Below are positions 3,249 through 57,250 of a DNA stretch of 64,000 bases, piece by piece. Source of the stretch: Nannobrachium achirus (Eukaryota; Chordata; Actinopteri; Myctophiformes; Myctophidae); the NCBI GenBank assembly GCA_963921795.1, contig OY997641.1, positions 76,523,063 through 76,587,062 of the forward strand. The letters run 5' to 3'. The translations under genes and the position numbers were made by a program. The first letter of the stretch is position 1. The number at the start of each line of letters is the position of its first letter. The notes below the pieces were generated by a model. The model was not told the origin of the DNA and did no database searches. It saw only the letters and a list, made by a program, of their open reading frames with translations.

Positions 3249-3255
3249 GGACACA
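3249..3255 (+). repeat. Left target-site repeat of the giant palindrome
   Basis: GGACACA here is repeated at 24298-24304, directly outside the mirrored ends CAACACATTATC and GATAATGTGTTG. If the element is taken to begin one base later, the repeat is 8 bp (GGACACAC). The two readings cannot be told apart from sequence. Confidence 0.65.
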
Positions 3256-3480
3256 CAACACATTATCATCCTCCCTGCGTCAGACCCTTGACGTTCGGTC
3301 ATTATAGCTTTCCGCGTTCATTTGAGCAGTAGGGAGCTAGGGAGAGCTGCCATGGCGTTCATTTGAGAGGCAGGGAGAGCTGCTCACGGCGTTCATTAGA
3401 GAAGCCGTCACTCTTTCAGTCGCTCTAGTAAGGTTACCATGGCAACGCGTCAACGGCGCGCTAGGGAGCGCTCCATTGTC

Positions 3481-3554
3481 AGAACCGGGATGCTGTTTTG
3501 ATACACTCGTGTATCAAAACATACACTCGTGTATCAAAACAGCATCCCGGTTCT
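3481..3554. repeat. 74-bp near-perfect hairpin
   Basis: AGAACCGGGATGCTGTTTTG at the start is matched by its complement at the end, with TACACTCGTGTA repeated inside. The right-arm equivalent (about 24006-24075) is a few bases shorter, so this hairpin has changed since the arms were duplicated. Confidence 0.75.
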
Positions 3555-3952
3555 GCAACATGAGCTAAAACAGTGATCGTCACGTGACCGTTTCAATATT
3601 CCGGTGGTTTAGTTCTTTAGTTGGTTTAGGCATCTCCATTCAATGCATTTTTATTACATTTAAAGCCTTAGCTTTATAATGTGTTTAATTGTAGCTCCCT
3701 TCAATTAATTGCTTAGATTTTTTAATGTTCAATGCATTTCTTTCATGTATTTATTTAATCTGTCATGTATTTATTTTGAGCCAACCGAAATGACAATAAT
3801 GTAATTTGGGCCAGTGTGTTTATTCATTGTTATTTATAAAAATAAATTCTAATTTGTTATGTTTTCACAGGAAGTTCAGTCGGCGGAAGTTGCGTGCGTC
3901 GTTCACCACTGAAAACAAAAACACCCCAACGGGAGAGTATTTTTTGCAGGTC

Positions 3953-4052
3953 TTTCAGTCCGAGTGTATACAAACAGCATCTTGTTAAGACGGCCAATCA
4001 CAAGCTCCGGCTGCCTTAACCCAGTTGCTTTTTTGATACACTCGGACTGAAC
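3953..4052. mobile_element. Small MITE with TTCAGTCCGAGTGTAT ends
   Basis: TTCAGTCCGAGTGTAT at about 3955 and ATACACTCGGACTGAA ending near 4051 form inverted ends around a 100-bp unit. Its interior has a second short inverted match (TTAAG and CTTAA). The equivalent unit is in the right arm at about 23511-23610. No target duplication was worked out. Confidence 0.55.
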
Positions 4053-4321
4053 CACCTGCGGTTTCCTATCCGCTCGTGGATTCACTGGATTACTTGTTTC
4101 ACAAGAGCAAAGAAGCGTCGCTGTCGTGGATCTGCATAATAAAGCGAGTCCATTCAGGTAAGAGACAATAGGCATCATCTAGAATGACTCAATGGGGGTT
4201 TATTGTTAAAATGTTAGGCTGTTGTACAGTAGGTCTGTAATGTTTTTCTTTACCTTGAAACACATGCTAACTCTCATGCTAACTGAAAGCTATTAAAGCT
4301 AACAACAACACCTCCCTCAGC

Positions 4322-4990
4322 CAGGGACCCCTTCTTAGCTGAAGCAGGGACCCCTTAGCTGAGAGAGAGATGAAGCAGGGACCCCTTAGCTGAGAGAGAG
4401 ATGAAGCAGGGACCCCTTAGCTGAGAGAGATGAAGCAGGGACCCCATAGCTGAGAGAGAGATGAAGCAGGGACCCCTTAGCTGAGAGAGAGATGCAGCAG
4501 GGACCCCTTAGCTGAAAGAGAGATGAAGCAGGGACCCCTTAGCTGAGAGAGATGAAGCAGGGAGTGGGACCCCTTAGCTGAGAGAGAGATGAAGCAGGGA
4601 CCCCTTAGCTGAGAGAGAGATGAAGCAGGGACCCCTTAGCTGAGAGAGATGAAGCAGGGACCCCTTAGCTGAGAGAGAGAGAGATGAAGCAGGGACCCCT
4701 TAGCTGAGAGAGAGATGAAGCAGGGACCCCTTAGCTGAGAGAGAGATGAAGCAGGGACCCCTTAGCTGAGAGAGAGATGAAGCAGGGACCCCTTAGCTGA
4801 GAGAGAGATGAAGCAGGGACCCCTTAGCTGAGAGAGAGTTGAAGCAGGGACCCCTTAGCTGAGGGAGAGATGAAGCAGGGACCCCTTAGCTGAGGGAGAG
4901 ATGAAGCAGGGACCCCTTAGCTGAGAGAGAGATGAAGCAGGGACCCCTTAGCTGAGAGAGAGATGAAGCAGGGACCCCGTAGCTGAGAAA
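4322..4990. repeat. Minisatellite, about 30-bp unit, left arm
   Basis: About 22 copies of a unit reading GATGAAGCAGGGACCCCTTA followed by GCTGAGAGAGA, with small length changes in the GA stretch. The unit derives from the edge of a hAT-like repeat also seen at 13290-13340 and 61460-61510. The right-arm counterpart (22860-23225) has about 12 copies, so the array changed size after the arms were formed. Confidence 0.9.
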
Positions 4991-5319
4991 GTTTGAGAAC
5001 ACTGTTCTTTACTTCAACAGTGGGAGTTACTACTGGGGGTCCTCCAAATCTTTGAGTGATAGAAACTTTTTTTTACTCCTTTTTTATATTAACTACTTGA
5101 ACCCTAGTGTCCATATTCTGAGAACTGTAGCCCAAAATAGCAGATCTACAAGCTCACAACGCCTCAATCGGCTGTTTTTGGCAAAGAGCTTTGGTGTAGA
5201 GAGGAAAAAGAGCAGACCAAGTACAGAGTGAAAGGTCAAGTTTATTAAGTATTGACAGTTCAAGGTTCAAGTGGTTAAATATCTGAAAACACAAATTGAC
5301 ATGAAAATATACATATATA

Positions 5320-5650
5320 CATATATGGAGATCCATCTACTGTATATAGTACATGCCTTTTATGCCCATACACCCTGTTAGATATGGGCTTAATATCGAT
5401 GACATCAGGGATCTCCATATATGGACATAAAATGGTTTCTGTTAGAGTGGTTCCCATGACATCACAGCATACAATAATTTGTTATGCCCATAGGAGATCC
5501 CTATCTGACCAGCCACACAGAGAGGGGCCATGTCTTGGCCATCTGGCCAGTGATATATATCAATGACAACAGGGATCTTCATATATGGGCATAAAAGGGA
5601 TTCTGGGTTATACCCATATATGGACTTTTACATAGGTTATGTCACCCGTG
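5320..5650. repeat. CCATATATGG-type motif cluster, left arm
   Basis: Motif copies at about 5417 and 5613 plus near variants at 5318 and 5579, in the usual 'CATAAAAGGGATTCTG' context. The right-arm equivalent is 17625-17935. Confidence 0.65.
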
Positions 5651-5664
5651 ATATCACCTGTGAT

Positions 5665-6280
5665 CAGGGGTGTCGCACCAAATTCTGGGCCCTGGGTACA
5701 AGGATTCAATGCGGGCCCCCCATGAATGTTCTAGGGGGAGGGGGTTTAACCCATTTAGCCTGGGAACGCATTATTTTGCGCTTTAACAATTGAAAAATAT
5801 CATAATATCTACAATATCACAATATCTACAAGCTCACAGCGCAGCACAGAGTGCCGCGCTGCGAGCTTGTAGATCTGCTATTTTTGAAAAATCGTGAAAA
5901 TGGGACTTGTAAGGTTTTTTGAAAAACCTATGTTTCTATGTCAGTGGTGCTCAAATTGTTTTGATGTGAAGGACCCCCAAAATGATATGTTTTTGACCAC
6001 GGACCCCCATCTCAAAATATTTAGTTCCAGGGATCCCCCAGAAGCCAAATTTGAGTTACAAATGTTCACTTAAAAAATACATATATTCAAAGATTTGCAC
6101 ACGTTTTCACGACGTTTCAAAAAATAGCAGATCTACAAGCTCGCAGCGCGGCACTCGGTGCCGCGCTGTGAGCTTGTACATTTGCTATTTTTCAATAGCT
6201 AAACTATAAAATAATTAAGGCCCCTCCACCTTGGGCCCTAGTAACTCAGTCCCACTTTCCCCCCCCTTGTGACGCCCCTG
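5665..6280. mobile_element. hAT-type MITE (CAGGGGTGTC/GACGCCCCTG), left arm
   Basis: Inverted ends CAGGGGTGTCGCAC and GTGACGCCCCTG are flanked by an exact 8-bp direct repeat CCTGTGAT (5657-5664 and 6281-6288), the hAT hallmark. Length is 616 bp. It contains two copies of the dispersed hairpin (about 5813-5885 and 6120-6188). It is also in the right arm (16542-17157) and as an independent insertion at 25871-26329. Confidence 0.85.
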
Positions 6281-7444
6281 CCTGTGATGCCACAGTGATG
6301 TGAAAAGGGAACCAACCTAAAACTGTGTACACACACGTCTACACAGAGACAAGCTGTAGCATTTCTCATGGTCAATTGCGACCGAAATTCAGAATGAATT
6401 TATACTAGTCTGAATCTTCACACACGTTCTGTTTTTCTCCACAGCTGTCATGCCAGGAACACTGCGACAACAGGACCATATCCGCCCGGCTGCCTGAAGC
6501 CCACCCTCGTGTTCCAGGAATTGCTACGGCCGAGCCCTCCGACGCGACCATGTCCTGCATATTACGCTTGGATTAACAGAATTTGGTGTTGATTTGTGGA
6601 CAACGTGGAGTATTTATCTGCTTCTACGGACAATGAAAGAACCAACGTCTACCACTCTCAAGCCTCAAAGTTCCTTAACTCTTTCTCAGCCCCCTTAAAT
6701 CTGGCTCTAAGTCTCTACTGCCGGATTTTTCACTCATTTTGGGGGACGATTACGCATCGTCTGTAGAGTGTATTGCACACCACACCCATATGACTGGAAA
6801 GGCCTGCTCGCGCTCTTTCCGATACATCAAACTAGAAAATCTGTATCTTGTTCTATAGTCTAGTAAATGGCAACTTTATAAAGATTGTTTTGCTATCAAA
6901 ACAGCCTTTTTGCATAGACATTTTGAGATAAACGACTTTTTAGTATAATAAATAGAATATCTATTCATTCTACTGTGAATATACCAACTTCCATATACGT
7001 ATGGAAAGATCAATTCGCCCTCTTTACAAATCCGCCAAGTAGTAAGTTGCTATCATTTTCTATTGTTTAGAAATAGGGCTGTTTGTAGGCGATGTAATCA
7101 CCAAAACAGCTTTCTGAATACATGTTTTCGAAAGGATGCTATCAAACATAACTCTTTTCAGCCTTCTATTTTTGGCTTCAATGATGCATCAGGCAGTATG
7201 TTTTCAAACAAATGGGTAAACAAATACGTGTTTTACAGACTTTTCAAGTATAAAGGCACATTTCAGCTCAATCCCTCAAGTTATGTGGACAATAGACCTA
7301 TAAGGGCTCTGGTCCATACTGATAGCAGTGGATGCAGGCACGCCTGTCATCCACACGGCGGCGCTGTCTATCTCAGAATGCAGTCTGATGCATGTCTCTT
7401 ACATCAATAAACACACGAGCACGCAACGTGCATGTGTTTACGTT

Positions 7445-7450
7445 GTGTCA

Positions 7451-7499
<49 letters not shown>

Positions 7500-7512
7500 C
7501 CCCCCCCCCCCC
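7445..7512 (+). repeat. (CT)n followed by a C run
   Basis: Simple CT dinucleotide run of about 45 bp and then about 16 C residues. The long SLSLSL open frames here are artefacts of the repeat. Confidence 0.95.
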
Positions 7513-7684
7513 TCTGCAACGTGCAACATGCATGTGCACGCGAACATGGGCATGCGCACGCACACGTGCACTCTTACTGTTTTCTTTTTTGTTTTTCTTT
7601 ACATATCTACTGCATAGTACTGTGTTCTATTTGTCTGTCATTCAATGTTATATGAGATATATGGTTTACTATGGAAATAAGCCT

Positions 7685-7768
7685 AGTATTTTCATGGATC
7701 TCCTTTTAGTAGACCTTGTACCAGTGAATGAAACTGTACCTTTTCCTATGCAAACTTCTAATAAAGTC

Positions 7769-7815
<47 letters not shown>
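7685..7815 (+). mobile_element. LINE 3' tail with (CAAT)n
   Basis: The text TAGTAGACCTTGTACCAGTG, then CTAATAAAGTCTTC, ends in a (CAAT)n run of about 11 units. The same tail occurs at 20514-20606 and 21690-21786. A short tail with an AATAAA-like signal and a simple-repeat end is typical of a 5'-truncated non-LTR element. There is no coding part here. Confidence 0.65.
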
Positions 7816-8290
7816 TCTCTCTCCCCAACTTTCTCAGAGAGAGAGAGAGAGAGAAATTAGAGCAAGAGAGAGAGAGCAGTGTAACAGAGCGAGTGGGTCG
7901 AGAGACATAGAGAGTCTGCTACACACTCTCTCTCCCTTTTTTTTCCGCGAGAGGTAGAGAGACATATAGACACGGTGAGAGATTGCCGTCCATCCAGCAA
8001 GTCCTCAGTAGTATAGTAAAGCACTAAACTAAACCCCCCCCACCATACACATGGCTGCTGCTACGTGAATGCCGTCCATCCAGCAATCCCAGGCCTGGGG
8101 AGGACGGTCATGTACCAAATCACCATGGTAACACAAGGTAACACAAGCTGATTGGCCACACAATGGTAACCATGGTGATTTTAGTCATTCCAGGGCCCAG
8201 GACGGCTGAATCCAAGCGTCAGTGATACATATGCTCCTAATCTTGTAAAGACATTCCAGCGTCAACCTTAGCTTTTTCTGAACTGACGCC

Positions 8291-8364
8291 GCTGAGCTAA
8301 ACGCCCTGCTCGATCGGCGGTGGTCCGCGGACCACGGCCGATCGAGCAGGGCGTTTAGCTCAGC
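8291..8364. repeat. 74-bp GC-rich palindrome
   Basis: GCTGAGCTAAACGCCCTGCT on the left is matched by its complement on the right, with centre GGTCCGCGGACC and only one mismatched pair. It sits directly between a terminus TTCTGAACTGACGCC and an A-rich run. The second copy of the surrounding repeat (28437-28592) lacks it. Confidence 0.9.
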
Positions 8365-8379
8365 GAAAAAAAAAGGTAT

Positions 8380-8578
8380 GGCAAAAAAAAGGTATGGCAA
8401 AAAAAAAAAAAAAAAAGCTGTCTTTCACGCGCGCGAGGCCCGGCGTGCAAGACACCAGTCATGTTGCCATACCTTTCCAACAGGCACGATTACAGTACAT
8501 TTTATTATATTCCCCCTGTAGCCAAGGTATGTGAGCTGCCATAGCTTGCCATACCCAATTGACGCCTCTCTTTTAGCT
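8380..8578 (-). mobile_element. Dispersed repeat with GGCGTCA end, inverted copy
   Basis: Text such as GTCATGTTGCCATACCTTTC, AACAGGCACGAT and CCCAATTGACGCC matches 28437-28592 in reverse. The family carries self-complementary GGTATGGC and GCCATACC blocks and would fold on itself. Family not identified. Confidence 0.6.
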
Positions 8579-8627
8579 TGGCTTGTGAGACCTGGCTCAC
8601 ACTACCAACAACAACACTGGATCTTAC

Positions 8628-8748
8628 TTTTACTACTGTCTGTTACTACTACAAACTATGGATGGACTATACAAAAGGTAAATATAATTATGATGTGTTT
8701 TTCTGTGATCTGAGACAGTTTGTTGTGTTTGGGCTGGTGATTTGAGAC
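8628..8748 (+). repeat. Direct repeat, first copy
   Basis: About 120 bp (TTACTTTTACTACTGTCTGT to GGGCTGGTGATTTGAGA) recurs almost unchanged at 9317-9437, and its last part recurs near 9700-9760. These are local tandem duplications inside the TTAA element. Confidence 0.8.
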
Positions 8749-8789
8749 TTTACTGTGATGATCACCTCAAACAATGTCAGCTGTTGGGG

Positions 8790-8794
<5 letters not shown>

Positions 8795-8820
<26 letters not shown>

Positions 8821-9060
8821 TGGTCGAGAGACATAGAGACACGGGGAGTGAAAGATTGCTTACTGAGAGAGAGAGAGGGAAATTAGAGCAAGAGAGAGAG
8901 AGAGGTGTAGCAGAGCAAGTGGTCGAGAGACATAGAGACACGGGGAGTGAAAGACCGCTTACTAAGAAAGAGAGAGAGGGAAATTAGAGCAAGAGAGAGA
9001 GAGAGGTGTGGCAGAGCGAGTGGTCGAGAGACATAGAGAGTCTGCTACACTCTCTCTCTC
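8795..9060 (+). repeat. GA-rich tandem units of about 115 bp
   Basis: The unit 'GTGGTCGAGAGACATAGAGA' followed by GA runs and 'AAATTAGAGCAAGAGAG' is repeated two to three times (8820, 8922, 9021). A related partial unit is near 7890. Open frames of the ERERER type here are artefacts. Confidence 0.8.
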
Positions 9061-9478
9061 GTCCTGGGCCCTGGAATGACTAAAATCACCATGGTTACCA
9101 TTGTGTGGCCAATCAGCTTGTGTTACCTTGTGTTACCATGGTGATTTGGTACATGACCGTCCTCCCCAGGCCTGGGATTGCTGGATGTACGGCATTCACG
9201 GCAAGGATCAGCCATGTGTTTGGGGGGGGGGGGTTTAGTTTAGTGCTTTAGTATACTACTGAGGACTATACTTCTACAGCCGTTACAAAAAGTTTTACTG
9301 GATCGTCATGGTTCTTACTTTTACTACTGTCTGTTACTACTACAAACTATGGATGGACTATACAAAAGGTAAATATAATTATGATGTGTTTTTCTGTGAT
9401 CTGAGACAGTTTGTTGTGTTTGGGCTGGTGATTTGAGAAAAAAAAAAAATACTAGCTCTTTCTCTTTTTTCCTCTCCT

Positions 9479-9588
<110 letters not shown>

Positions 9589-10022
9589 CTCTCTCTCTCT
9601 CTCTCTTTTTATCAATCAGCCATCTCAATTGCTCTCACTCGGCTAGAATGCCAAGACGGTTCCCACAGCTCTTGTGTCTGGTGATTGTTGTGGTAATGTG
9701 ATGTGATTTTCTCTGATCTGAGACAGCTGGTTTGTGTTTGGGCTGGTGATTTGAGGCTTTCCTTTGATGTGGTTCACTCCAAACAATGTCAGAAGTTGGG
9801 GAAGGCTTTGAAGTTTAAAAAAAAAAAAAAAAAAAAAAGTGCGTAAAAGTGCGTGTCGGCTGGGAGGCTCTTGCGCAAAATTGCGTAATAGTGCGTTCAG
9901 GCTGAGAAAGAGTTAAGGATAGTACTTTGCATTCACTCATTCCTTCCCACAATATGAGAGTCCTATGGGCAGCTTGAAACGTGGGCGGGAGTACTTGCCT
10001 TGACAGACAGACTCCTCTAACC

Positions 10023-11091
10023 CAGTGGTTCTCAACCATGTGGGTCGGGACCTCCAGGGGGGTCCCCAAATTATTTTGAGGGGTCCTCAGATGATTGACT
10101 TGATGTGCAACATTGTTTTCTCACTCAACAGTAAAAAATAAATAAATAAATAAAAAAACAAGTGTATAGAGGTGTATGAACATTTCTAAAGTGACAATTT
10201 AAGGAATTTTTAATACCTCTAAAATGACAAATTAAACATTGGCCAAAATTGGTCAAATATTAGAGTCAGAAATTGTGAAAATAGCCGATCTATAGCCGCA
10301 AATTGCAACACTAGATTTTATTTTAATCGGATGAATCTAGGGTTGCAATACCTCCCATAGGCAGCCAATGCATCAAAACAGTTTCTTTGCTATCTGATTG
10401 TAATAAACAACTTCAAATTCAGCTATATTGGGGCTCTATGGAAAGCTCAGAGTGTCCTCTTTCTATCTGCAAAGTGTTTGTTTCATAAAAATCCACCGTA
10501 GACATTTTAGGAGCTACTTTCTATCAAGAAATTGGAGCAGACATGGTTTATTTTCTACGTGTTGAACTTCGGAAGCGCTCGTCTTCTATTACGCAGCGTC
10601 CCGCTGCCTCCTGCATTATGTGACATTTAGAACCAGGTGGTACACATGACTGCTGAGTGACAACTCCAGCACTTGAAGCCAATATCTTGATAGAAAGTAG
10701 CTCATAACATGTCTACGGTGGAGTATTATGAAAGAAACTCTTTGCAGATAGAACGAGGATACTCCAAGCTTTCCATACAGCCCCGATATTGGTGAGTTTG
10801 AAGTCGTTTAATACAATCAGATAGCAAATAACTGTTTTGATGCTATGCCTGCCTATGGGAGGTATTGCAACCCTAGATTCATCAGATTAAAATAAAATCT
10901 AGTGTTGCAATTTGCGGCTAGCCGATCTACATGCTCACAACGCCTCGCAACGCAAGGTGCTGTGAGCATGTAGAACTGTGTTATACAAAATGTAATGCCT
11001 CAACTCTTACTGCTTGTCAGGGTGGGGGTTCCCAGTTAAAATATGGTTATTTTGGGGGTCGCGGCCTGAAAAAGTTTGAGAACCATTGTTC
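10023..11091. mobile_element. hAT-type element (CAGTGGTTCTCAA ends), left arm
   Basis: Ends CAGTGGTTCTCAACC and TTTGAGAACCATTG, flanked by CTCTAACC and TTCTAACC, which match at 7 of 8 positions and so suggest the 8-bp duplication of hAT. It carries the dispersed hairpin, which is interrupted by a MULE-like insert. The right-arm equivalent is at about 14950-16035, so it predates the arm duplication. Confidence 0.75.
10293..10920. mobile_element. MULE-like MITE with 9-bp target repeat, left arm
   Basis: TAGCCGCAAATTGCAAC and its complement GTTGCAATTTGCGGCTA form the tips of long inverted arms (about 240 bp each). The flanks repeat GCCGATCTA exactly (10284-10292 and 10921-10929). A 9-bp duplication with long arms is the Mutator-like pattern. 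The target was the dispersed hairpin. The right-arm equivalent ends at 15765. Confidence 0.8.
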
Positions 11092-11850
11092 TAACCAATC
11101 AGCGTAGCAAAACATCTGACGTCATCTCAGTGCAGCCAGTCGGAAGCACGGCAAACACATATTTTCGGCCGATGAACTCCGCTAGCACATACTCTTGTTC
11201 CTTTTTAATTGTTGTAATTGATTCCAACTCTGAAATAACTTGCATTATGTTGCTTTATGTATCTATTTCTGTCTGTTATGTGGATGAATACATGGAAAAT
11301 ATATTTCCAAGCTGTATTACGATACACAATTTTATCAAGATTCTTTTTCATGTTGGTTTTTATGGTATTTAGGGGAGACCTTGCTACTTAACATTGAACT
11401 ACTGATTTAGACAAAATTGCAAATTGGATTCTGAAACAAATCTCTGTAATTAACAGGCTCCCTCATTGTATCACGATATACTGTATACGATATCTCTGAA
11501 GAGGCATATCGTTGAGACATTGTATAGTCTCAACGATATATATTACCATATCGCCCACCCCTACACTCAACTAAGCCGTGAGTCGTGAGATGATAAACAT
11601 GTAGAGATGTTTTCCCTCTCTCTGCAGTTGTAGGATACGTTGTGTGATTATTGCCATATTATCTGTCATCTATTTCAAGAACAATAAATTCTAAGAATCT
11701 GTATCTTGTCTTTGTTGATTGTCTGAAGTTTTTCTTACAGTAACACAGCCAGTTATAGTGTTGTAATAGTGTTATTATTATAATAAAATGTGATACAATC
11801 TTTTTGAACAGTTAACATAAGCAGGTAACTGAGTGCACCTCATGGTAGAG

Positions 11851-12240
11851 CAAGGGTCTTCAGCCGGGGGTCCGGGACCCCTAGGGGGTCCTCAGAATTA
11901 CTACAGGGGGTCTTCCAAATCTTTGAGTGATAGGGGGAAAAAAACTTTTTTATATGAACCACTTGAACCCGAGTGTCCATATTCGGAGAACTTTAGCCAA
12001 AAATAGCAGATCTACAAGCTCAGCTGTGAGCTTGTAGATCGGCTATATTCGGCAAAGAGGTTTGGTGTAGAGGGGAAAAAGAGCAGACTAAGTACAGATT
12101 GAAAGGTCAGGTTTGTGAAGTACTGACATTTCAAGTTGTTAAATATCTAAAAATGACATGAATCCAAAATACTGTACACTGCTTCATCTCTCTCAACTAA
12201 AGGGTCCTTGGCCTGAAAACGTTGAAGACCCTAGAAGATC
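11851..12240. mobile_element. hAT-like repeat (CAAGGGTCTTCA ... TTGAAGACCC), left arm
   Basis: Starts CAAGGGTCTTCAGCC and ends GTTGAAGACCCTAG. The interior has a hairpin copy (12004-12050) and the text AGAGCAGACTAAGTACAG, shared with 5200, 13480, 13950, 22620 and 61295. The ends fit hAT but I found no clean 8-bp duplication. Confidence 0.5.
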
Positions 12241-12741
12241 TGCTATTTTCAACTAGCCAATGAACAACAGATGTTGATACTAAGTAGTATTTAGGATAGA
12301 CCCCTGTATTTGATATTAAATGTACTTATTAGTATGTTAAAGTAAATGATCCTACTAGAAAGTAAAGGCTGTTAATAAAAATCTAATTACAAATCAGTCA
12401 GACTTTTCTTTCTCTCTGTGAGCTTCATAAAGTTTAATGTATATGATAAGATGTCATTATACAGTATGAACTTCATTATATACCAGTAAGACTCCCTGAT
12501 CTCTTATCTCTGTCTGTCTGGCTCTCTTTTATGCCCATATGGTGTTCCATGTCCAGGCCAGTCTGTGACCACTCTGTGATGTCAGTCATTTTGGGCACTG
12601 TTTAGTATCAGTGATGTCAGAAATGATGTCGGATGTCATTCATGACAGATATAATTTGTGCATTGTTTCAACATGCAGCTGTTACCATGGGGCGACACTG
12701 TTTAGTATCAGTGATGTCAGCATACAGACAGACAGACGGCG

Positions 12742-12853
<112 letters not shown>

Positions 12854-13079
12854 TTCAGTCCATTAATACCAGTAGTTAGATGGGGTAGTTAGATGGGGTG
12901 CATAGCGTTGTTTCGATGTATTGGTGAATGCTAACCTGGTGGACTGACATCTAGACCTACTGCACATGCAGTATGAAACAGAGCTGATACAAAATACCTG
13001 TATTTTGAGGACAATAATGCTGCTATTTGTACCCTGTATATAAAATGTCACAATGCGACATAGCTCTGTTTACACAATG

Positions 13080-13215
13080 CTGTACCCCCTCCAACTGTAT
13101 ATATGTTCCCCATTTTCAACTGTTTTTTATTGTATTTGTGATACTTGCTTTGGCAATGTAAACGTATGTTTTCTCATGCCAATAAAGCTCCTTTGAATTG
13201 AATTGAATTGAATGA
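13080..13215 (+). mobile_element. LINE 3' tail with (TTGAA)n-type end
   Basis: CAATGTAAACGTATG, then CAATAAAGCTCCTTTGAATT and repeated GAATTGAATT at the end, as in the 3' ends of fish L2/Rex-like LINEs. There is no coding part. Confidence 0.5.
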
Positions 13216-14949: not shown

Positions 14950-16035
14950 GAACAATGGTTCTCAAAAATGTTCAGGCCGCGACCCCCAAAATAACCATAT
15001 TTTAACTGGGAACCCCCACCCTGACAAGCAGTAAGAGTTGAGGCATTACATTTTGTATAACACAGTTCTACATGCTCACAGCACCTTGCGTTGCGAGGCG
15101 TTGTGGGCATGTAGATCGGCTAGCCGCAAATTGCAACACTAGATTTTATTTTAATCTGATGAATCTAGGGTTGCAATACCTCCCATAGGCAGGCATAGCA
15201 TCAAAACAGTTATTTGCTATCTGATTGTATTAAACGACTTCAAACTCACCAATATCGGGGCTGTATGGAAAGCTTGGAGTATCCTCGTTCTATCTGCAAA
15301 GAGTTTCTTTCATAATACTCCACCGTAGACATGTTATGAGCTACTTTCTATCAAGATATTGGCTTCAGATGATAATTTTTTCCAAGTGCTGGAGTTGTCA
15401 CTCAGCAGTCATGTGTACCACCTGGTTCTAAATGTCACATAATGCAGGAGGCAGCGGGACGCTGCGTAATAGAAGACGAGCGCTTCCGAAGTTCAACACG
15501 TAGAAAATAAACCATGTCTGCTCCAATTTCTTGATAGAAAGTAGCTCCTAAAATGTCTACGGTGGATTTTTATGAAACAAACACTTTGCAGATAGAAAGA
15601 GGACACTCTGAGCTTTCCATAGAGCCCCAATATAGCTGAATTTGAAGTTGTTTATTACAATCAGATAGCAAAGAAACTGTTTTGATGCATTGGCTGCCTA
15701 TGGGAGGTATTGCAACCCTAGATTCATCCGATTAAAATAAAATCTAGTGTTGCAATTTGCGGCTATAGATCGGCTATTTTCACAATTTCTGACTCTAATA
15801 TTTGACCAATTTTGACCAATGTTTAATTTGTCATTTTAGAGGTATTAAAAATTCCTTAAATTGTCACTTTAGAAATGTTCATATACCTCTATACACTTGT
15901 TTTTTTTATTTTTTTATTTATTTTTTACTGTTGAGTGAGAAAACAATGTTGCACATCAAGTCAATCATCTGAGGACCCCTCAAAATAATTTGGGGACCCC
16001 CCCTGGAGGTCCCGACCCACATGGTTGAGAACCAC
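14950..16035. mobile_element. hAT-type element, right-arm copy
   Basis: Reverse-complement counterpart of 10023-11091 with the same MULE-like insert (about 15120-15765) and hairpin (15065-15123). The 98-aa open frame next to it (14669-14965, minus) equals the one at 11076-11372 except for one residue, and starts inside the hAT end, so it is not taken as a gene. Confidence 0.7.
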
Positions 16036-16541
16036 TGGGTTAGAGGAGTCTGTCTGTCAAGGCAAGTACTCCCGCCCACGTTTCAAGCTGCCCATAGGAC
16101 TCTCATATTGTGGGAAGGAATGAGTGAATGCAAAGTACTATCCTTAAGGAACTTTGAGGCTTGAGAGTGGTAGACGTTGGTTCTTTCATTGTCCGTAGAA
16201 GCAGATAAATACTCCACGTTGTCCACAAATCAACACCAAATTCTGTTAATCCAAGCGTAATATGCAGGACATGGTCGCGTCGGAGGGCTCGGCCGTAGCA
16301 ATTCCTGGAACACGAGGGTGGGCTTCAGGCAGCCGGGCGGATATGGTCCTGTTGTCGCAGTGTTCCTGGCATGACAGCTGTGGAGAAAAACAGAACGTGT
16401 GTGAAGATTCAGACTAGTATAAATTCATTCTGAATTTCGGTCGCAATTGACCATGAGAAATGCTACAGCTTGTCTCTGTGTAGACGTGTGTGTACACAGT
16501 TTTAGGTTGGTTCCCTTTTCACATCACTGTGACATCACAGG

Positions 16542-17157
16542 CAGGGGCGTCACAAGGGGGGGGAAAGTGGGACTGAGTTACTGGGGCCCAAGGTGGAGGG
16601 GCCTTAATTATTTTATAGTTTAGCTATTGAAAAATAGCAAATGTACAAGCTCACAGCGCGGCACCGAGTGCCGCGCTGCAAGCTTGTAGATCTGCTATTT
16701 TTTGAAACGTCGTGAAAACGTGTGCAAATCTTTGAATATATGTATTTTTTAAGTGAACATTTGTAACTCAAATTTGGCTTCTGGGGGATCCCTGGAACTA
16801 AATATTTTGAGATGGGGGTCCGTGGTCAAAAACATATCATTTTGGGGGTCCTTCACATCAAAACAATTTGAGCACCACTGACATAGAAACATAGGTTTTT
16901 CAAAAAACCTTACAAGTCCCATTTTCACGATTTTTCAAAAATAGCAGATCTACAAGCTCGCAGCGCGGCACTCTGTGCTGCGCTGTGAGCTTGTAGATAT
17001 TGTGATATTGTAGATATTATGATATTTTTCAATTGTTAAAGCGCAAAATAATGCGTTCCCAGTCTAAATGGGTTAAACCCCCTCCCCCTAGAACATTCAT
17101 GGGGGGCCCGCATTGAATCCTTGTACCCAGGGCCCAGAATTTGGTGCGACACCCCTG
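16542..17157. mobile_element. hAT-type MITE, right-arm copy
   Basis: Counterpart of 5665-6280 with ends CAGGGGCGTCAC and GCGACACCCCTG and the 8-bp flanks ATCACAGG (16534-16541 and 17158-17165). It carries two hairpin copies (16632-16703 and 16938-17005). Confidence 0.85.
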
Positions 17158-17203
17158 ATCACAGGTGATATCACGGGTGACATAACCTATGTAAAAGTCC
17201 ATA

Positions 17204-17624
17204 TGTGTCCCAATCTCACTGAGAGCCAGTCATCTCGGAAAGTACAGCTTTAGACAGGGACTGAAAATACTTTTTTTTTTTTTTTCTCACTAAAATGTGA
17301 TAAAGCCACTAAAGCATTTCATAAATTTCAGGCTACATTTCACTTAAACGCCAGAGCTTAACTCTGCATGTAAATAAGACTTTTTTAAATTAATGTGAGA
17401 GATCGTCAGGTCATTTGCAGGTTAGAAATGTATTTAGAACTTGAATATCTCAAAAGTAGTATTTCAGCATGGCATCATTCTATAAGCCATATCTTCAAAA
17501 CTGTTGGGTCAATCTCCACAACCAATATATCATTTTGTAGCTATGATCACCAGCTTTCAAATGAAATGAAAAAATGAAAATGAATAAAAATCCAATGACT
17601 GGCTCCCAGCCAAATTGGGACACA
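17204..17624. mobile_element. TA-flanked MITE inserted in the right arm
   Basis: Ends TGTGTCCCAAT and ATTGGGACACA around 421 bp. The left arm at about 5610-5620 reads CCCATATATGGAC without it, so it entered the right arm after duplication. The duplicated target is TA (or ATAT). This pattern fits a Tc1/mariner-type non-autonomous element. Confidence 0.75.
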
Positions 17625-18346
17625 TATATGGGTATAACCCAGAATCCCTTTTATGCCCATATATGAAGATCCCTGTTGTCATTGATATATATCACTGGCC
17701 AGATGGCCAAGACATGGCCCCTCTCTGTGTGGCTGGTCAGATAGGGATCTCCTATGGGCATAACAAATTATTGTATGCTGTGATGTCATGGGAACCACTC
17801 TAACAGAAACCATTTTATGTCCATATATGGAGATCCCTGATGTCATCGAAATTAAGCCCATATCTAACAGGATGTATGGGCATAAAAGGCATGTACTATA
17901 TACAGTAGATGGATCTCCATATATGTATATACAGTGGTTAGCACTTGAGATTGGCAGTGTCACCAGTTGGCTGCCTCAGTGGCACCACTGTAGTGCCATT
18001 GAGTGAATTGAGTGAAATGTGGTACCACCTTTTTTAGAGGTGTTACAGCATGTAATGTGGCTGATCTGCCACAGGGAGGCACATGTGAGTCCATGAACCC
18101 TACATTACAGTGTTGGCAACACGGCAAGGGTGAACAGATTCATTGTGATTGTTATTAATTAAAGAAAAATTAGACGACAATGCAGAGTTCAGGTTGAATT
18201 GAAATGCAATTGTTGCTTTATACACAACTGTGTTTATTATACTTAAAAACATTTGACAAATGAAAAACTAGATGTGCCTAGAACTCAACTAGGTTTGTAA
18301 TAATAAGTATGCTATTGAATTCTAATTTCCCCACGACCCATGGCAG

Positions 18347-18422
<76 letters not shown>
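18347..18422. repeat. (TA)n microsatellite
   Basis: About 37 perfect TA units followed by short (AAT)n. Confidence 0.97.
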
Positions 18423-18432
<10 letters not shown>

Positions 18433-18583
18433 TAATAATAATATTAGTACATAAAATATTCAGTCAACAATTAGAAAAATACGGTTTAAATAAAAACATT
18501 GGAAACTGTTTGAATGGACAACATTTTAGAGGCTAAAGGAACAATGAAACCCTGATCTCCTGACTAACAAGTATATATCCTGG

Positions 18584-18790
18584 CCTAGACAGCTGTAACT
18601 TAGTGGTTATTGAGAATGGCTGGAGAGCCTAAGCTCCTGTTTGTCCCAGGTACGATTCCTGGCCATGCCAGCTAGGAATTGATGTGTCCCTGAGCAAGAC
18701 TCTTAACCCCTTATCGCTCCCTGAGCCCCTGCTACAGAGAATTGGTGTTGTGCATTATAATAATTATATTTTCACACTAATTGTATGGAA
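18584..18790 (+). mobile_element. tRNA-headed SINE, copy 1
   Basis: The RNA polymerase III A-box-like stretch TAACTTAGTGGTTATTG is followed about 35 bp later by a B-box-like GGTACGATTCC (18649-18659) and then the shared text TGTCCCTGAGCAAGAC. A near-identical copy is at 20338-20512. It is a SINE head rather than a tRNA gene, because the acceptor arm does not pair. Confidence 0.7.
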
Positions 18791-18870
18791 ATGCATTTGA
18801 TTGTTTATTGTTTGTTTTACTGTTTATAAGGCATTTCATTGAAATGTTACTTTTAGTAGGCTTGACTTAA

Positions 18871-19173
18871 AGGGGAAGACCACCCATTTTCAATATTGAA
18901 CTATGTCATTAATATACTAGAGGAGTTGTGTGGAAAGAGAAAAAAAGTTCCCCCTCTTCTGTGTTGCCTAGAACTGGAGGATTGATTTTGGGGTTTGTAT
19001 TGTAAATTACAACTTGATGACATCACACATTGTACTTTACAATACAAACCCCAAAATCAATCCTCCAGTTCTAGGCAACACAGAAGGGGGGGAACTTTTT
19101 TTTTATTACCACACAACTCCTCTAAGGTATATTAATGACATAGTTCAATATTGAAAATGGGTGGTCTTCCCCT
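18871..19173. mobile_element. TTAA foldback MITE (AGGGGAAGACCACCC ends)
   Basis: Almost the whole 303 bp is an inverted repeat (for example ACTGGAGGATTGATTTTGGG and its complement), with ends AGGGGAAGACC and GGTCTTCCCCT. TTAA flanks both sides (18867-18870 and 19174-19177). It is similar in plan to the element at 45812-46688. It fits a piggyBac/Kolobok-type non-autonomous element. Confidence 0.85.
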
Positions 19174-19559
19174 TTAAGTGATGCATCTATTCTCTCCACA
19201 AATGAAGGCCTCAAAAACGTTTTTTGGAGTAATAAGCTAATCTGCATTATCAGATCTACCAGGCTATTTTTGCTACTTGTCAACACACCGCGACGTGAGG
19301 CGGTGTGAGCTTGTAGATCGTCTATTTTCCAAAGATTTTTATACAATTGTGATAACTTGAAATCATACATTCTGCACAATGAGTACTTTTGGAACTTTAA
19401 GAACATTTTGACCGATACTTTTGTACTTTTACTCAAGTATTTTTTTCATACAGGACTTCTACTTGTAACAAAGTACATCTACATTGCAGTAAGTAAAGCA
19501 TATAAGTAGCCTACTTTTTCTACCACTGGTCACCACAAGACAAGTTATTACAATGGTTT

Positions 19560-19710
19560 AGACCCAGGCAGTTGTAGTTGAGTGGTTAGTGTGCCTGCCT
19601 AGCAGTCCAGAGCCCTCCAGAGTACTCGCAGGTACGATTCCTGCCCATGTCACATGTCTGCTGAAGTGTCCCTGAGCAAGACTTTTAAACCCCCAATAAA
19701 GAAACAATCT
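19560..19710 (+). mobile_element. tRNA-headed SINE, variant copy
   Basis: A box-like TAGTTGAGTGGTTAGTG, B box GGTACGATTCC (about 19631) and the same TGTCCCTGAGCAAGAC text. A partial relative lies at 20110-20200. Confidence 0.6.
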
Positions 19711-20040
19711 GTATAGAAACAATACTAATTCTTTATTTTTGTTTAAATTGTGTCTGTTTTGCAATCATCATAGGGATATACAAAATAGCCATAAAGTGAT
19801 TACTAACTTCTAATTGTTGAATGGAAGATTTTATTGTTGTTTTTTTAGTTTTTTTTTCTGTCCTGGGGACAGACCTGATTTTCATTACACCTTGGCACTA
19901 AGGTACATAATACATTATTATTATAATGTTTTTTGTTTTTTTTATTAGAGAAATAATGCAAAGTTCTTCGAATGACCACAACTCCCCCAAGTCCCAACCC
20001 CCCATGTGAGACAGTTTAGCAAATAAACTCACAGAGAGAG

Positions 20041-20105
20041 TCAGACACACACAGTGGGGGGTTGGGGGGTTGGGGGGTTGGGGGTTGGGGGTTGGGGGTT
20101 TGGGA
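20041..20105 (+). repeat. GGTTGGGG-type simple repeat
   Basis: GTTGGGGG units repeated about eight times, with one strand very G-rich. Capable in principle of G-quadruplex formation; this is inference only. Confidence 0.8.
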
Positions 20106-20337
20106 GTACACAGGTACGAATTCTGACCAGGCCACCTACTTGCTGAAGTGTCCCTGAGCAAGACTTTTAAATCCCTAATAAAGAAACAATCTCTTTTGAA
20201 ATAATCCTAATGACTTATTTTATTATTGTCTCTTCTGCAATCATCATAGGGATATACAAAATAGCCGTAAAGTGATTACTAACTTCTTATTGTTGAATGG
20301 AAGATTTTATTGTATTGTGTGACTAACAAGTATATAT

Positions 20338-20512
20338 CCTGGCCTAGACAGCTGTAGCTTAGTGGTTATTGAGAATGGCTGGAGCGCTGAAGCTCCTGTT
20401 TGTCCCAGGTACGATTCCTGGCCGTGCCAGCTAGGAATTGATGTGTCCCTGAGCAAGACTTTTAACCCCTTATCGCTCCCTATGCCCCTGCTACAGAGAA
20501 TTGGTGTTGTTG
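20338..20512 (+). mobile_element. tRNA-headed SINE, copy 2
   Basis: Nearly identical to 18584-18790 through the head and the GAGCAAGAC body, and directly followed by a LINE tail. Confidence 0.7.
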
Positions 20513-20513
20513 T

Positions 20514-21120
20514 CCTTTTAGTAGACCTTGTACCAGTGAACTGTACCGTCATGAAACTGTACCTTTTCCTATGCAAACTTCTAATAAAGTCTTCAATCAA
20601 TCAAAAAACTATCATTAAGAACTCTACATCTGTTTCTCAACTATTCAGACTGTCACTGTAGCAGGCTAACTACAGTCTAGCCAGTACGACACACTTCTGC
20701 ATTAGGTCCAGTGTGGTCTAGGGGGCTGTTAGACAGGCTTGTAAGCCAAAGGACAGGGGTTTGATTCCTGCATGTTCCATTGAAATGGCATTGTTTGTGA
20801 TGGATTTCAAATCATCTAACATTGGTTAGTTGTTTTTTAAAGTAGCAATCTTTAAAAAAGAAAATACTCACAATTACATAGGGATATATAAAAATGCCTA
20901 AAGGTGATAATCAACTGGACTGGAGGATTTTATTGAATTATTTTATGTATCCTTTATTTTTCCTGGCCTGGAGACTTTGAAATTAGAATAGTTAATTTGT
21001 CTAAAACTCAAGCTTTGTTGTCCATGTTTAAAGTCACCCCTCCCCTGGATTCCAAAGTTTAGTAATACAAATAACTTTATAACACAATTGCCAAAAAGTC
21101 ATTGCTGTTGACTGAAAACT
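20514..21120 (+). repeat. Tandem duplication, first copy (LINE tail + SINE-like unit)
   Basis: The LINE-like tail with CTAATAAAGTCTTC, then a tRNA-like head (TGGTCTAGGGG and GGTTTGATTCC near 20710-20770), then about 300 bp more. The whole block recurs at 21690-22335. The middle of the second copy has small insertions, so the duplication is not recent. Confidence 0.75.
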
Positions 21121-21689
21121 TGTTTCTGTCTCAAACTATATCTGACACTTTTGTTCAATTCAGTTACAAGACCATCCATTTTTAGCTGGGTCCCCCCCCC
21201 CCTTTCTTTTAAGCTTGGGAAAAAAATGTAGCAAAATATAGCCTCCATTTATCACTTCAACACTATTTGAATTTGGTTCTGCATAAAGGCTCAGATGCAG
21301 TAGCATACTTAAAGTTGAATCTTCATCATGAACTCAAAAGAATACACCTTCTACTTGATCATTGATTGACCAATTTGCAGGTACTTCAGTGCATAAAGTC
21401 TCAGCGCATTGGGGCCAGAGGCCTGAGATCTGACTGTCTATCACACTTTGTGAAATGGCTCCCCACACCCTCCCCAAGTGATGGGGACATCACCCCTCCC
21501 CCTCGGCAGCCGCTGTGAGCTTGTAGATCGGCTGTTTTCTGCAAAGAGCTGGGGTTTTTTCCCCTTCTTTTATGATTGGCAGAAATGTAGCAACAATATA
21601 GCCTCCATTTATCACATAAACACCATTTGATTTTTAAAACTATTTATATGAGATACTTTAATGGAAATAAGCTTAGTCTTTTCATGGAT

Positions 21690-22335
21690 CTCCTTTTAGT
21701 AGACCTTGTACCAGTGAACTGTACCGTCATGAAACTGTACCTTTTCCTATGCAAACTTCTAATAAAGTCTTCAATCAATCAAAAAACTATCATTAAGAAC
21801 TCTACATCTGTTTCTCAACTATTCAGACTGTCACTGTAGCAGGCTAACTACAGTCTAGCCAGTACGACACACTTCTGCATTAGGTCCAGTGTGGTCTAGG
21901 GGGCTGTTAGACAGGCTTGTAAGCCAGAGGACAAGGGTTCGATTCCTGCATGTTCCATTGAAATGGCATTGTTTGTAATGGATTTCAAATCATTTAACAT
22001 TGTTTAGTGTAAGAAACATAGTTGTTTTTTAAAGTAGCAATCTTTAAAAACGAAAATACTCACAATTACATAGGGATATATAAAAATGCCTAAAGGTGAT
22101 AATCAACTGGACTGGAGGATTTTATTGAATTATTTTATTTATCCTTTATTTTTCCTGGCCTGGAGACTTTGAAATTAGAATAGTTAATTTGTCTAATGTT
22201 GTTAAATATGATAAACAGTTGTTAATATAGCAATAATTGCTTTTTCAGTTCATTAGAACTCTGCATTTAAATTCACCCTTTCCCCTGGATTTAATACAAT
22301 TGCCAACAAGTCATTGCTGTTGACTGAAAGCTCAA
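21690..22335 (+). repeat. Tandem duplication, second copy
   Basis: Matches 20514-21120 in order: LINE tail, tRNA-like head with B box GGTTCGATTCC (about 21937), AACTGGACTGGAGGATTT and AAGTCATTGCTGTTGACTGA. Between the copies are a hairpin half (about 21505-21540) and unrecognised sequence. Confidence 0.75.
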
Positions 22336-22859
22336 AATCTTCTCATTCTTGAAAATTAAATAAACTACCCAGTTAAGCAACAAACCTGTCTCATATGCCT
22401 TTGTCTGGGCATTAGTTGCTCTCTAACCCCACCTAGTGGTTGTGGCATGTAACAACGTGGTGCCTCAACTGATTTGGCTGCCATGGTGGTACCACATCAG
22501 TGCCACGACCAGCACTTTCAAGGTACAACCACTGTATGTATATTTTCATGTCAATTTGTGTTTTCAGATATTTAACCACTTGAACTGTCAATACTTAATA
22601 AACTTGACCTTTCACTCTGTACTTGGTCTGCTCTTTTTCCTCTCTACACCAAAGCTCTTTGCCAAAAACAGACGATTGAGGCGTTGTGAGCTTGTAGATC
22701 TGCTATTTTGGGCTACAGTTCTCAGAATATGGACACTATGGTTCAAGTAGTTAATATAAAAAAGGAGTAAAAAAAAGTTTCTATCACTCAAAGATTTGGA
22801 GGACCCCCAGTAGTAACTCCCACTGTTGAAGTAAAGAACAGTGTTCTCAAACTTTCTCA

Positions 22860-23225
22860 GCTACGGGGTCCCTGCTTCATCTCTCTCTCAGCTAAGGGGT
22901 CCCTGCTTCATCTCTCTCTCAGCTAAGGGGTCCCTGCTTCATCTCTCCCTCAGCTAAGGGGTCCCTGCTTCATCTCTCCCTCAGCTAAGGGGTCCCTGCT
23001 TCAACTCTCTCTCAGCTAAGGGGTCCCTGCTTCATCTCTCTCTCAGCTAAGGGGTCCCTGCTTCATCTCTCTCTCAGCTAAGGGGTCCCTGCTTCATCTC
23101 TCTCTCAGCTAAGGGGTCCCTGCTTCATCTCTCTCTCAGCTAAGGGGTCCCTGCTTCATCTCTCTCTCAGCTAAGGGGTCCCTGCTTCATCTCTCTCTCT
23201 CAGCTAAGGGGTCCCTGCTTCAGCT
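22860..23225. repeat. Minisatellite, about 30-bp unit, right arm
   Basis: About 12 copies of the unit described for 4322-4990, in reverse orientation. Confidence 0.9.
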
Positions 23226-24297
23226 AAGAAGGAGTCCCTGGCTGAGGGAGGTGTTGTTGTTAGCTTTAATAGCTTTCAGTTAGCATGAGAGTTAGCATGT
23301 GTTTCAAGGTAAAGAAAAACATTACAGACCTACTGTACAACAGCCTAACATTTTAACAATAAACCCCCATTGAGTCATTCTAGATGATGCCTATTGTCTC
23401 TTACCTGAATGGACTCGCTTTATTATGCAGATCCACGACAGCGACGCTTCTTTGCTCTTGTGAAACAAGTAATCCAGTGAATCCACGAGCGGATAGGAAA
23501 CCGCAGGTGGTTCAGTCCGAGTGTATCAAAAAAGCAACTGGGTTAAGGCAGCCGGAGCTTGTGATTGGCCGTCTTAACAAGATGCTGTTTGTATACACTC
23601 GGACTGAAAGACCTGCAAAAAATACTCTCCCGTTGGGGTGTTTTTGTTTTCAGTGGTGAACGACGCACGCAACTTCCGCCGACTGAACTTCCTGTGAAAA
23701 CATAACAAATTAGAATTTATTTTTATAAATAACAATGAATAAACACACTGGCCCAAATTACATTATTGTCATTTCGGTTGGCTCAAAATAAATACATGAA
23801 AGATTAAATAAATACATAAGAAATGCATTGAACATTAAAAAATCTAAGCAATTAATTGAAGGGAGCTACAATTAAACACATTATAAAGCTAAGGCTTTAA
23901 ATGTTATAAAAATGCATTGAATGGAGATGCCTAAACCAACTAAAGAACTAAACCACCGGAATATTGAAACGGTCACGTGACGATCACTGTTTTAGCTCAT
24001 GTTGCAGAACCGGGATGCTGTTTTGATACACGAGTGTATGTTTTGATACACGAGTGTATCAAAACAGGTTCTGACAATGGAGCGCTCCCTAGCGCGCCGT
24101 TGACGCGTTGCCATGGTAACCTTACTAGAGCGACTGAAAGAGTGACGGCTTCTCTAATGAACGCCGTGAGCAGCTCTCCCTGCCTCTCAAATGAACGCCA
24201 TGGCAGCTCTCCCTAGCTCCCTACTGCTCAAATGAACGCGGAAAGCTATAATGACCGAACGTCAAGGGTCTGACGCAGGGAGGATGATAATGTGTTG

Positions 24298-24304
24298 GGA
24301 CACA
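24298..24304 (+). repeat. Right target-site repeat of the giant palindrome
   Basis: GGACACA matches 3249-3255. Confidence 0.65.
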
Positions 24305-25862: not shown

Positions 25863-25870
25863 CGCGTTCC

Positions 25871-26329: not shown

Positions 26330-26346
26330 CGCGTTCCCGCACACAC

Positions 26347-29379: not shown

Positions 29380-29383
<4 letters not shown>

Positions 29384-30888: not shown

Positions 30889-30974
30889 TAATTGGTTTTG
30901 TGTCGGCAGGACCAGGAGAGAGCAATAAGGAGAGACTGAACGGTTATATTTTGTGTTTGTATTGAGATTTTAGG

Positions 30975-37664: not shown

Positions 37665-37669
<5 letters not shown>

Positions 37670-56808: not shown

Positions 56809-57250
56809 CCGAGTTTCCCGAGTTTGTATTGGTACTAGTGCTGTGCCAACCCCGAGTTTCCCGAGTTTGGGCCGTTTTTGAAAAAAAAAAAAAAAAAAAA
56901 ATCAAAAATTTTTTTTTTCAAAACATTTTTTTGGACCTCCAGAAATGTATTAGGCATGATCGCGATCGCGAAATTGCATGTTTAACCCCCATACCAACCC
57001 ATTCTTTCAAACATGGCAGCCATTTTTGTTTACATCTGAAGAAAACATAATGGCTGATAAATCATGAATGCCTGAACGGATTTCCAAGCGGATTTTTTTG
57101 GTTGAAAGCTGTGAACAGCATCTACACACGTGGTGCATCATCTAGGCATGGGCGTGCACTTTTTACACACTTGCACAATTACATGGAAGTCTATGGTAAA
57201 CATGGCAACGCGAGACATTGAAGAGAAAAAATCATTGCAACATAAGTGTT
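56809..57250 (+). mobile_element. Uninterrupted relative of the repeat that holds the giant palindrome
   Basis: Matches 2921-3255 plus 24298-24400 in order with no insert. The junction reads TCTACACACGTGGTGCATCA, where the interrupted copy has GGACACA on both sides of the palindrome. Confidence 0.65.

What the first reader, a model, noticed from the sequence alone, without database searches (positions are those of the whole stretch)
3249..24304. A 21-kb palindrome with matched termini and flanking target-site repeat: a giant foldback-like mobile element
Seen: near-identical inverted arms run to the very ends (CAACACATTATC and GATAATGTGTTG), and GGACACA (or GGACACAC) lies directly outside both. 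A related repeat at 56809-57250 is continuous where this copy is split. Known: MULE and foldback elements make long inverted arms with 8-9 bp duplications, but arms of about 6 kb with no transposase are exceptional. Inference: the whole palindrome moved as a unit.
Basis: partly seen in the sequence, partly recalled or inferred. Interest (0 to 1): 0.9.

Follow-up and report, generated by a model that had tools for sequence, protein, structure and literature searches.

The report
Giant palindromic jumping DNA, 7-bp duplications
The 21-kb palindrome is a 12.8-kb non-coding mobile element made mostly of two mirror-image arms of about 5.5 kb, with three other jumping genes landed inside it; relatives sit elsewhere in the same genome, most with their own 7-base insertion scar, and the two arms seem to be made identical around the time each copy moves.

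Summary
Window 3256-24297 is one copy of a DNA element with matched ends (CAACACATTATC...GATAATGTGTTG) flanked by GGACACA on both sides; a related repeat in the window is the unfilled site. The mobile unit is about 12.8 kb: sibling copies lack three nested elements totalling 8.3 kb. Genome-wide, 14 of 17 insertion loci with both ends read have perfect 7-bp duplications of different sequence. The window copy and six others share flanks: one insertion spread among chromosome ends.

Two families (A, B) share little but their ends, yet both are palindromes with arms of about 5 kb, 97.5-99.8% alike. Across four separate insertions, 16 differences are shared by both arms of a copy and none splits all left from all right arms; among four duplicates of one insertion, 0 are shared and 19 private. 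So arms are homogenised before or around insertion. One sibling has its spacer inverted, a sign of arm-to-arm recombination.

Best filed as a non-autonomous foldback-type DNA transposon of unassigned superfamily: 7 bp recalls Galileo, but no linked P transposase was found.

The parts
3249..3255 (.). left 7-bp target-site duplication GGACACA
   Evidence: gap-free alignment of the joined flanks to the unfilled-site paralogue at the junction
3256..6678 (+). left arm, outer part; holds a 31-bp tandem array at 4340-4988
6679..9912 (.). nested element 1 (3.2 kb), TTAA duplication, ends CTCTTTCTCAGCC...GGCTGAGAAAGAG
   Evidence: absent from the C14, C8 and C7 copies
9913..12114 (+). left arm, inner part (first 4 bp are the TTAA duplicate)
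12115..13926 (.). central spacer between the arms; inverted in the C3:165225 sibling
13927..17204 (-). right arm, inner part
17205..17622 (.). nested element 2 (418 bp), CATAT or ATAT duplication, ends GTGTCCCAA...TTGGGACA(C)
   Evidence: absent from the C14, C8, C3a and C7 copies
17623..17931 (-). right arm, middle piece
17932..22534 (.). nested element 3 (4.6 kb), TA duplication, ends CAGTGGTT...AACCACTG
   Evidence: absent from the C14, C8 and C7 copies
22535..24297 (-). right arm, outer part, ends GATAATGTGTTG; holds the 31-bp tandem array at 22855-23222
24298..24304 (.). right 7-bp target-site duplication GGACACA
56880..57260 (+). paralogue of the target repeat without the element (unfilled site)
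   Evidence: 83% to the left flank and 81% to the right flank, continuous at the junction

Best explanation
It is a non-autonomous, cut-and-paste-type DNA transposon of foldback build. A transposase supplied from elsewhere recognises the conserved ends (CAACACATT[A/C]TCA[C/T]CC and the next 60 or so bases), cuts a new target with a 7-nt stagger and inserts the whole 12-13-kb palindrome (shown: ends, 7-bp duplications, unfilled site; inferred: the enzyme and cut-and-paste). The rest of each arm is free to change almost completely (families A and B share little inside), but its two copies are kept alike by copying between arms. The copying occurs before or around transposition (supported in family A by shared versus private differences; the mechanism, gene conversion or fold-back synthesis, is inferred) and occasionally in a resident copy (C3:165225: inverted spacer, and uniform states at the three sites that tell left from right in its siblings). 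The window copy was also hit by three other transposons and is part of a subtelomeric block shared among chromosome ends.
For: 19 convergent pairs of 11.9-23.7 kb in 56 end matches, reversed control 0. Perfect 7-bp duplications at 14 of 17 loci with both ends read. Unfilled site. Small relatives with related ends and 7-bp duplications. Arms 97.5-99.8% alike in the alignments over 600 bp of the 11 copies and the 3 (C2 is in both). 16 concordant, 28 private, 1 mixed and 0 all-left-versus-all-right events across four insertions, against 0 concordant, 19 private and 4 mixed in four duplicates; Fisher p=0.0014. Inverted spacer in one sibling. All 11 (family A, L019) and 26 (family B, L025) frames of 80 aa or more in the first 10 kb fetched of one copy each were scanned: no transposase; only DUF6451 in the B spacer passes a Pfam cut-off. 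Subtelomeric block: the downstream flank matches at about 100% at the same seven places.
Against: No autonomous partner was found, so trans-mobilisation is inferred. 3 of 17 loci lack a matching duplication (C18:54383028, C3:10327822, a 148-bp element at C15:8968187), and two of the 14 lie in simple repeats (C8:25231440, C13:55953527). In family A, C3:10.3 Mb arms are as close to C544 arms as to each other, so arms of a copy do not always pair best. With C3a included the duplicates show 3 concordant sites instead of 0. Copy C8 is in both groups of the Fisher test, and sites within a copy are not fully independent. Spliced or very short genes would escape a scan of frames.
Confidence: 0.88

Rival explanations
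1. It is a member of the P superfamily, a Galileo-like element with enormously lengthened inverted repeats, mobilised by a P-type transposase of the same genome.
For: 7-bp duplication; Galileo is a P-superfamily element with 7-bp duplications, long inverted repeats and non-autonomous copies with the longest repeats (PMC3573991 and PMC2775673, passages). Intact P transposase frames exist in this genome. Galileo also conserves little but its extreme ends and has binding sites in internal repeats (PMC3688188, abstract and introduction).
Against: None of the 37 P-transposase matches lies within 50 kb of an end listed, nor inside the 56-kb relative. Four P loci looked at (C8, C5, C24, C4) show no such ends; a CAACACTTTATG beside three of them looks like chance. 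Zebrafish Pdre2 has other ends and 8-bp duplications (PMC10983969, passages).
Confidence: 0.22
2. It is a MULE or other Mutator-type element.
For: MULEs commonly have long inverted repeats (PMC3310237, abstract start in listing); MULE transposase domains occur in this genome (52 matches).
Against: Duplications are 7 bp at 14 of 17 loci rather than 8-10 (MULE value recalled). None of the 52 MULE matches lies within 15 kb of an end listed or 66 (150 of 215 candidates were scored, and searches listed about 100 of 255 and 204 ends).
Confidence: 0.1
3. The copies are only a segmental or subtelomeric duplication of one palindrome, with no transposition.
For: Seven copies share flanks; six lie near an end of a chromosome-size contig in one orientation to that end, one is on a 77-kb contig.
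Against: 13 further loci have different flanks, each with its own 7-bp duplication; unfilled site present.
Confidence: 0.03
4. The inverted arms are an assembly or sequencing artefact such as a joined hairpin read.
For: Palindromes are a known assembly hazard (general knowledge).
Against: The same architecture recurs at many loci with exact ends and target duplications, arms differ by a few private substitutions and by array length, and two families with different interiors show it.
Confidence: 0.02

Closest known systems
Galileo (P superfamily, Drosophila)
   Same: 7-bp target duplication; long internally repetitive inverted repeats; conservation limited to the extreme ends; non-autonomous copies with the longest repeats (PMC3573991 and PMC2775673: passages; PMC3688188: abstract and introduction)
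   Different: Galileo repeats reach about 1.26 kb in the passages read, here about 5 kb; no P transposase linked here; arms here evolve in concert (not looked for in Galileo by me)
Foldback-type elements such as Tm1 (also FB and Tetris, by name only)
   Same: long, complex inverted repeats with internal repeats, non-autonomous members
   Different: Tm1 has 8-10-bp (mostly 9) duplications in 45 of 53 elements and two repeats 93% alike on average (PMC3169594, passages); here 7 bp and longer, more alike arms
MULEs with long inverted repeats
   Same: long inverted repeats
   Different: duplication length (MULE value recalled); no MULE transposase found nearby
Palindromes kept alike by gene conversion, such as those on sex chromosomes (recalled)
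   Same: arm-to-arm homogenisation, spacer inversion
   Different: here the palindrome is itself mobile and homogenisation tracks separate insertions

Membership tests
Foldback-type non-autonomous DNA transposon | long inverted repeats forming most of the element, mobile as a unit with target duplications | tested here: met
Foldback-type non-autonomous DNA transposon | no transposase of its own (for the non-autonomous class) | tested here: met
   11 of 11 frames of L019 and 26 of 26 of L025 (80 aa or more) scanned against Pfam; only DUF6451 in the B spacer passes its cut-off. The 9 frames in L020 and L026, mostly the mirrored outer arm, were not scanned
P superfamily / Galileo | P-type transposase in an autonomous partner with these ends | tested here: inconclusive
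   no P match near the listed ends, four P loci examined; but no autonomous partner of any kind was found and end lists were cut
P superfamily / Galileo | 7-8-bp target duplication | tested here: met
   7 bp at 14 of 17 loci
MULE | 8-10-bp target duplication | tested here: not met
   7 bp (same calls); the MULE value is recalled
MULE | MULE transposase in an autonomous partner | tested here: inconclusive
   52 matches, none within 15 kb of a listed end; 150 of 215 candidates scored, end lists cut
Dada | insertion in small-RNA genes, no terminal inverted repeats | tested here: not met
   inverted ends and varied flanks here; Dada features from PMC3706591, passages
Subtelomeric segmental duplication (for the window copy) | near-identical flanks at several chromosome ends, same orientation to the end | tested here: met

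The most novel reading that the evidence does not exclude
Transposition of these elements re-makes the palindrome: one arm is copied from the other during each transposition cycle (fold-back or snap-back synthesis, or obligatory arm-to-arm conversion of an excised hairpin-prone intermediate). Any interior joined to the ends is thereby turned into a near-perfect giant palindrome, which would explain why families with different interiors share the architecture.
Probability: 0.25. Interest if true: 0.85.

Novelty: new variant of a known kind. Interest (0 to 1): 0.62.

Why it matters
Here a set of related families carries near-perfect palindromes of 12-13 kb, moves them whole, and keeps the arms alike in a way that tracks separate insertions. 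That makes an old question testable: how long inverted repeats arise and stay perfect in mobile DNA. Such palindromes are also likely inversion and breakage hot spots (general knowledge), and one is already shared by at least six chromosome ends.

Tried and rejected
P-element link: P transposases are present (12 family matches; 37 protein matches), and a CAACACTTTATG beside three of four loci looked like a terminus, but one locus carries a short repeat there and no second end or matching duplication was found; only 6 matches to that stretch were found. Dropped. Dada considered and dropped. KolobokP looked at and dropped: direct, not inverted, long repeats (abstract and passages). MULE: no linked transposase.

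Literature: the end sequences occur in 17 papers, of which 15 were listed; by title none is about transposons; none was opened. One search gave no paper; some searches listed 9, 11 and 4; two searches listed 15 of 215 and 15 of 1,291. By title none reports a giant palindromic vertebrate element. Only open-access PMC papers are searched, so this is no proof of absence from print.

Counts: the Fisher test was first run with C3a and uncollapsed sites (3/25 versus 23/33, p=0.005), then without C3a and with neighbouring sites collapsed (0/19 versus 16/28, p=0.0014). C8 is in both groups. In one search, rows C6_L and C325_R were compared but are unusable, their ends being altered in the stretch fetched; C6 and C325 were left out. 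The 31-bp array, the innermost part and gapped columns were excluded from arm counts. One site with more than two states was set aside. Ungapped comparison of the first 290 bp gave 0-1 mismatches in five B pairs but 162 in C16, which I read as an indel and did not resolve.

Full report
Observation. A self-comparison of the window shows inverted alignments that chain into one palindrome from 3256 to 24297. The ends are CAACACATTATC and GATAATGTGTTG, and GGACACA lies directly outside each. A genome search placed the window at C4:76523063-76587062 of an unnamed 1.66-Gb genome with 564 contigs and listed 41 matches to the terminal 200 bases (40 of 85 candidates scored), many in convergent pairs 12-14 kb apart.

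True size. Compared with the C14, C8 and C7 copies, the window copy has three extra segments with their own inverted ends and target duplications: 6679-9912 (TTAA), 17205-17622 (CATAT or ATAT) and 17932-22534 (TA). Without their length of 8.3 kb the element is about 12.8 kb, against 12.2-12.8 kb for the siblings on C14, C12, C8 and C3. So the 21-kb length is a 12.8-kb palindrome with three passengers. Two other siblings, C6 (23.7 kb) and C325 (17.5 kb), are also longer.

It moves as a unit. An end pattern found 56 places (27 forward, 29 reverse; reversed control 0), of which 38 form 19 convergent pairs of 11.9-23.7 kb. Seven of these pairs (window, C14, C12, C8:70.0 Mb, C3:165 kb, C6:200 kb, C325) carry the same flanks and count as one locus. 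The other 12 pairs, together with C3:10.3 Mb, the 56-kb C21 pair, C13:55.95 Mb and a 148-bp element at C15:8968187, make 17 loci in all. At 14 of 17 the 7 bases on both sides are identical: GGACACA, GATCAGA, GAAAAAC, GGAATTC, GATACAT, ACTATAC, TATAGGT, GTGTGTG, TATAGGC, CTGGCTG, GATTAAG, GATTATA, TCATTCC, CACACAC. GTGTGTG and CACACAC lie in simple repeats on one or both sides and count for less. Misses: C18:54383028, C3:10327822 (left end altered) and the 148-bp element (5 of 7 bases). In the window itself, a repeat at about 56880-57260 is 83% and 81% identical to the two flanks and runs without a gap over the junction when one GGACACA is removed: the unfilled site.

Spread of the window copy. 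A stretch 1.2-2.2 kb beyond the right end (window 25500-26500) matches at about 100% at the same seven places, at six over the whole stretch and at C12 over 46-1001; no other scored candidate matched more than about half (40 of 6171 candidates were scored). Nearer flanks are 97.7-99.7% identical where read. Six of the seven lie 50-200 kb from the end of a chromosome-size contig, in one orientation relative to that end. The window copy therefore most likely arrived by exchange of a subtelomeric block after one insertion.

Architecture. Family A (window, C7, C544, C3:10.3 Mb and siblings) has arms of about 4.9-5.7 kb around a spacer of 1.5-1.8 kb; alignments over 600 bp between the arms are 97.5-99.8% identical, shorter ones across the tandem array lower. 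Family B (C2, C15:58.9 Mb, C6:37.2 Mb read whole) has arms of 5.45 kb and a spacer of 1.1 kb; the arms are 99.8% identical in two copies and 99.3-99.7% in C2. Between A and B only the terminal 70 bases (87%) and short repeats are alike. A third family on C18 shares 78 bp with A and about 250 bp with B at its end, besides short pieces. A 56-kb relative on C21 has terminal repeats of at least 850 bp, 85-94% alike by piece, and part of them is 73-74% identical to family A arms; the same search shows further inverted pairs on C13 (15.4 kb), C4 and C22. All frames of 80 aa or more in the first 10 kb fetched of an A copy (11) and of a B copy (26) were scanned: no transposase; one frame in the B spacer matches DUF6451 above its cut-off, and a few sub-threshold matches fall mostly in a tandem-repeat region. 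Small relatives of 96-721 bp with related ends and 7-bp duplications were found at 5 of 15 further end loci (two of those 15 being the ends of the 56-kb element) and at 2 of 8 others.

Arms evolve together. On 3346 aligned columns of family A, the two arms of one copy differ at 5-11 sites; arms of separate insertions differ at 9-41. Across four separate insertions (C8, C7, C544, C3:10.3 Mb), 23 sites (16 events after collapsing neighbours) have the same state in both arms of each copy but differ between copies, 33 sites (28 events) are private to one arm, 1 is mixed, 1 has more than two states, and none separates all left from all right arms. Among four duplicates of one insertion (window, C14, C12, C8) there are 0 concordant, 19 private and 4 mixed events; Fisher p=0.0014. 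With the fifth duplicate, C3:165 kb, added, there are 3 concordant sites. That copy has its spacer inverted relative to its flanks and uniform states at the three sites that separate left from right in its siblings, so it has most likely recombined in place. Family B gives a similar picture: arms differ at 2, 3 and 9 of 4540 sites, and of 19 two-state sites 6 are concordant, 10 private and 3 mixed. The simple reading is that arms are identical when a copy lands and then drift, with occasional repair.

What moves it. Unknown. Seven bases recall Galileo of the P superfamily (PMC3573991, PMC2775673: passages; PMC3688188: abstract and introduction). P transposases occur here, some with intact frames, but none of 37 matches lies within 50 kb of an end listed, and the four loci examined show no such ends. 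Zebrafish Pdre2 has other ends and 8-bp duplications (PMC10983969, passages). None of 52 MULE matches lies within 15 kb of a listed end. The end lists were cut at about 100 places, so this is not exhaustive. I therefore file the element as a foldback-type non-autonomous DNA transposon without superfamily.

Novelty. The kind is known; the arm length, the recurrence of the architecture in families with different interiors, and the concerted arms that track separate insertions are the new parts. In the passages read, Galileo repeats reach about 1.26 kb and the two Tm1 repeats average 93% identity.

Noticed in passing
G000 C21:43742081-43798088 (ends L094, L095): A 56-kb stretch bounded by related ends, with TCATTCC on both sides and terminal inverted repeats of at least 850 bp; possibly the autonomous relative or another filled palindrome. 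Interior not read.
   Followed up: partly
G000 C4:79729-99506, C22:54111299-54144341, C13:55953527-55968949: Further inverted pairs related to the arms, 15-33 kb; the C13 pair has CACACAC on both sides, one side in a CA run.
   Followed up: partly
G000 C9:67273060/67274817, C18:4469544/4471152, C20:55498052/55499724, C12:4159592/4162883, C1:83577155/83579859: MULE transposase matches in pairs on opposite strands 1.4-3.0 kb apart, as if some MULEs here carry two opposed transposase-like genes.
   Followed up: no
G000 C15:8968187-8968334 (L039): A 148-bp element joining two different end types, with flanks that match at only 5 of 7 bases; perhaps a chimera.
   Followed up: no
L046 (C21, about 99.5 kb from the contig start): A family A end duplicated in tandem 79 bp apart, with a flank unlike that of the other subtelomeric copies.
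   Followed up: no
L025/L026 (C2:7293385): A family B copy sits in what reads by eye as a C2H2 zinc-finger coding repeat (flanks; not tested).
   Followed up: no
window 29380-36842 and 37663-45352: Two LTR retrotransposons: one with a PNMA-like gag and RT/RNase H frames, one of BEL/Pao type with Pao peptidase, RT and integrase frames.
   Followed up: partly
window 48950-56800: A dense mosaic of direct and inverted repeats with 37-bp and 82-bp tandem units; the 37-bp unit contains ATATATGGGCATAAAAGGG, and similar text is visible inside the palindrome arms.
   Followed up: no
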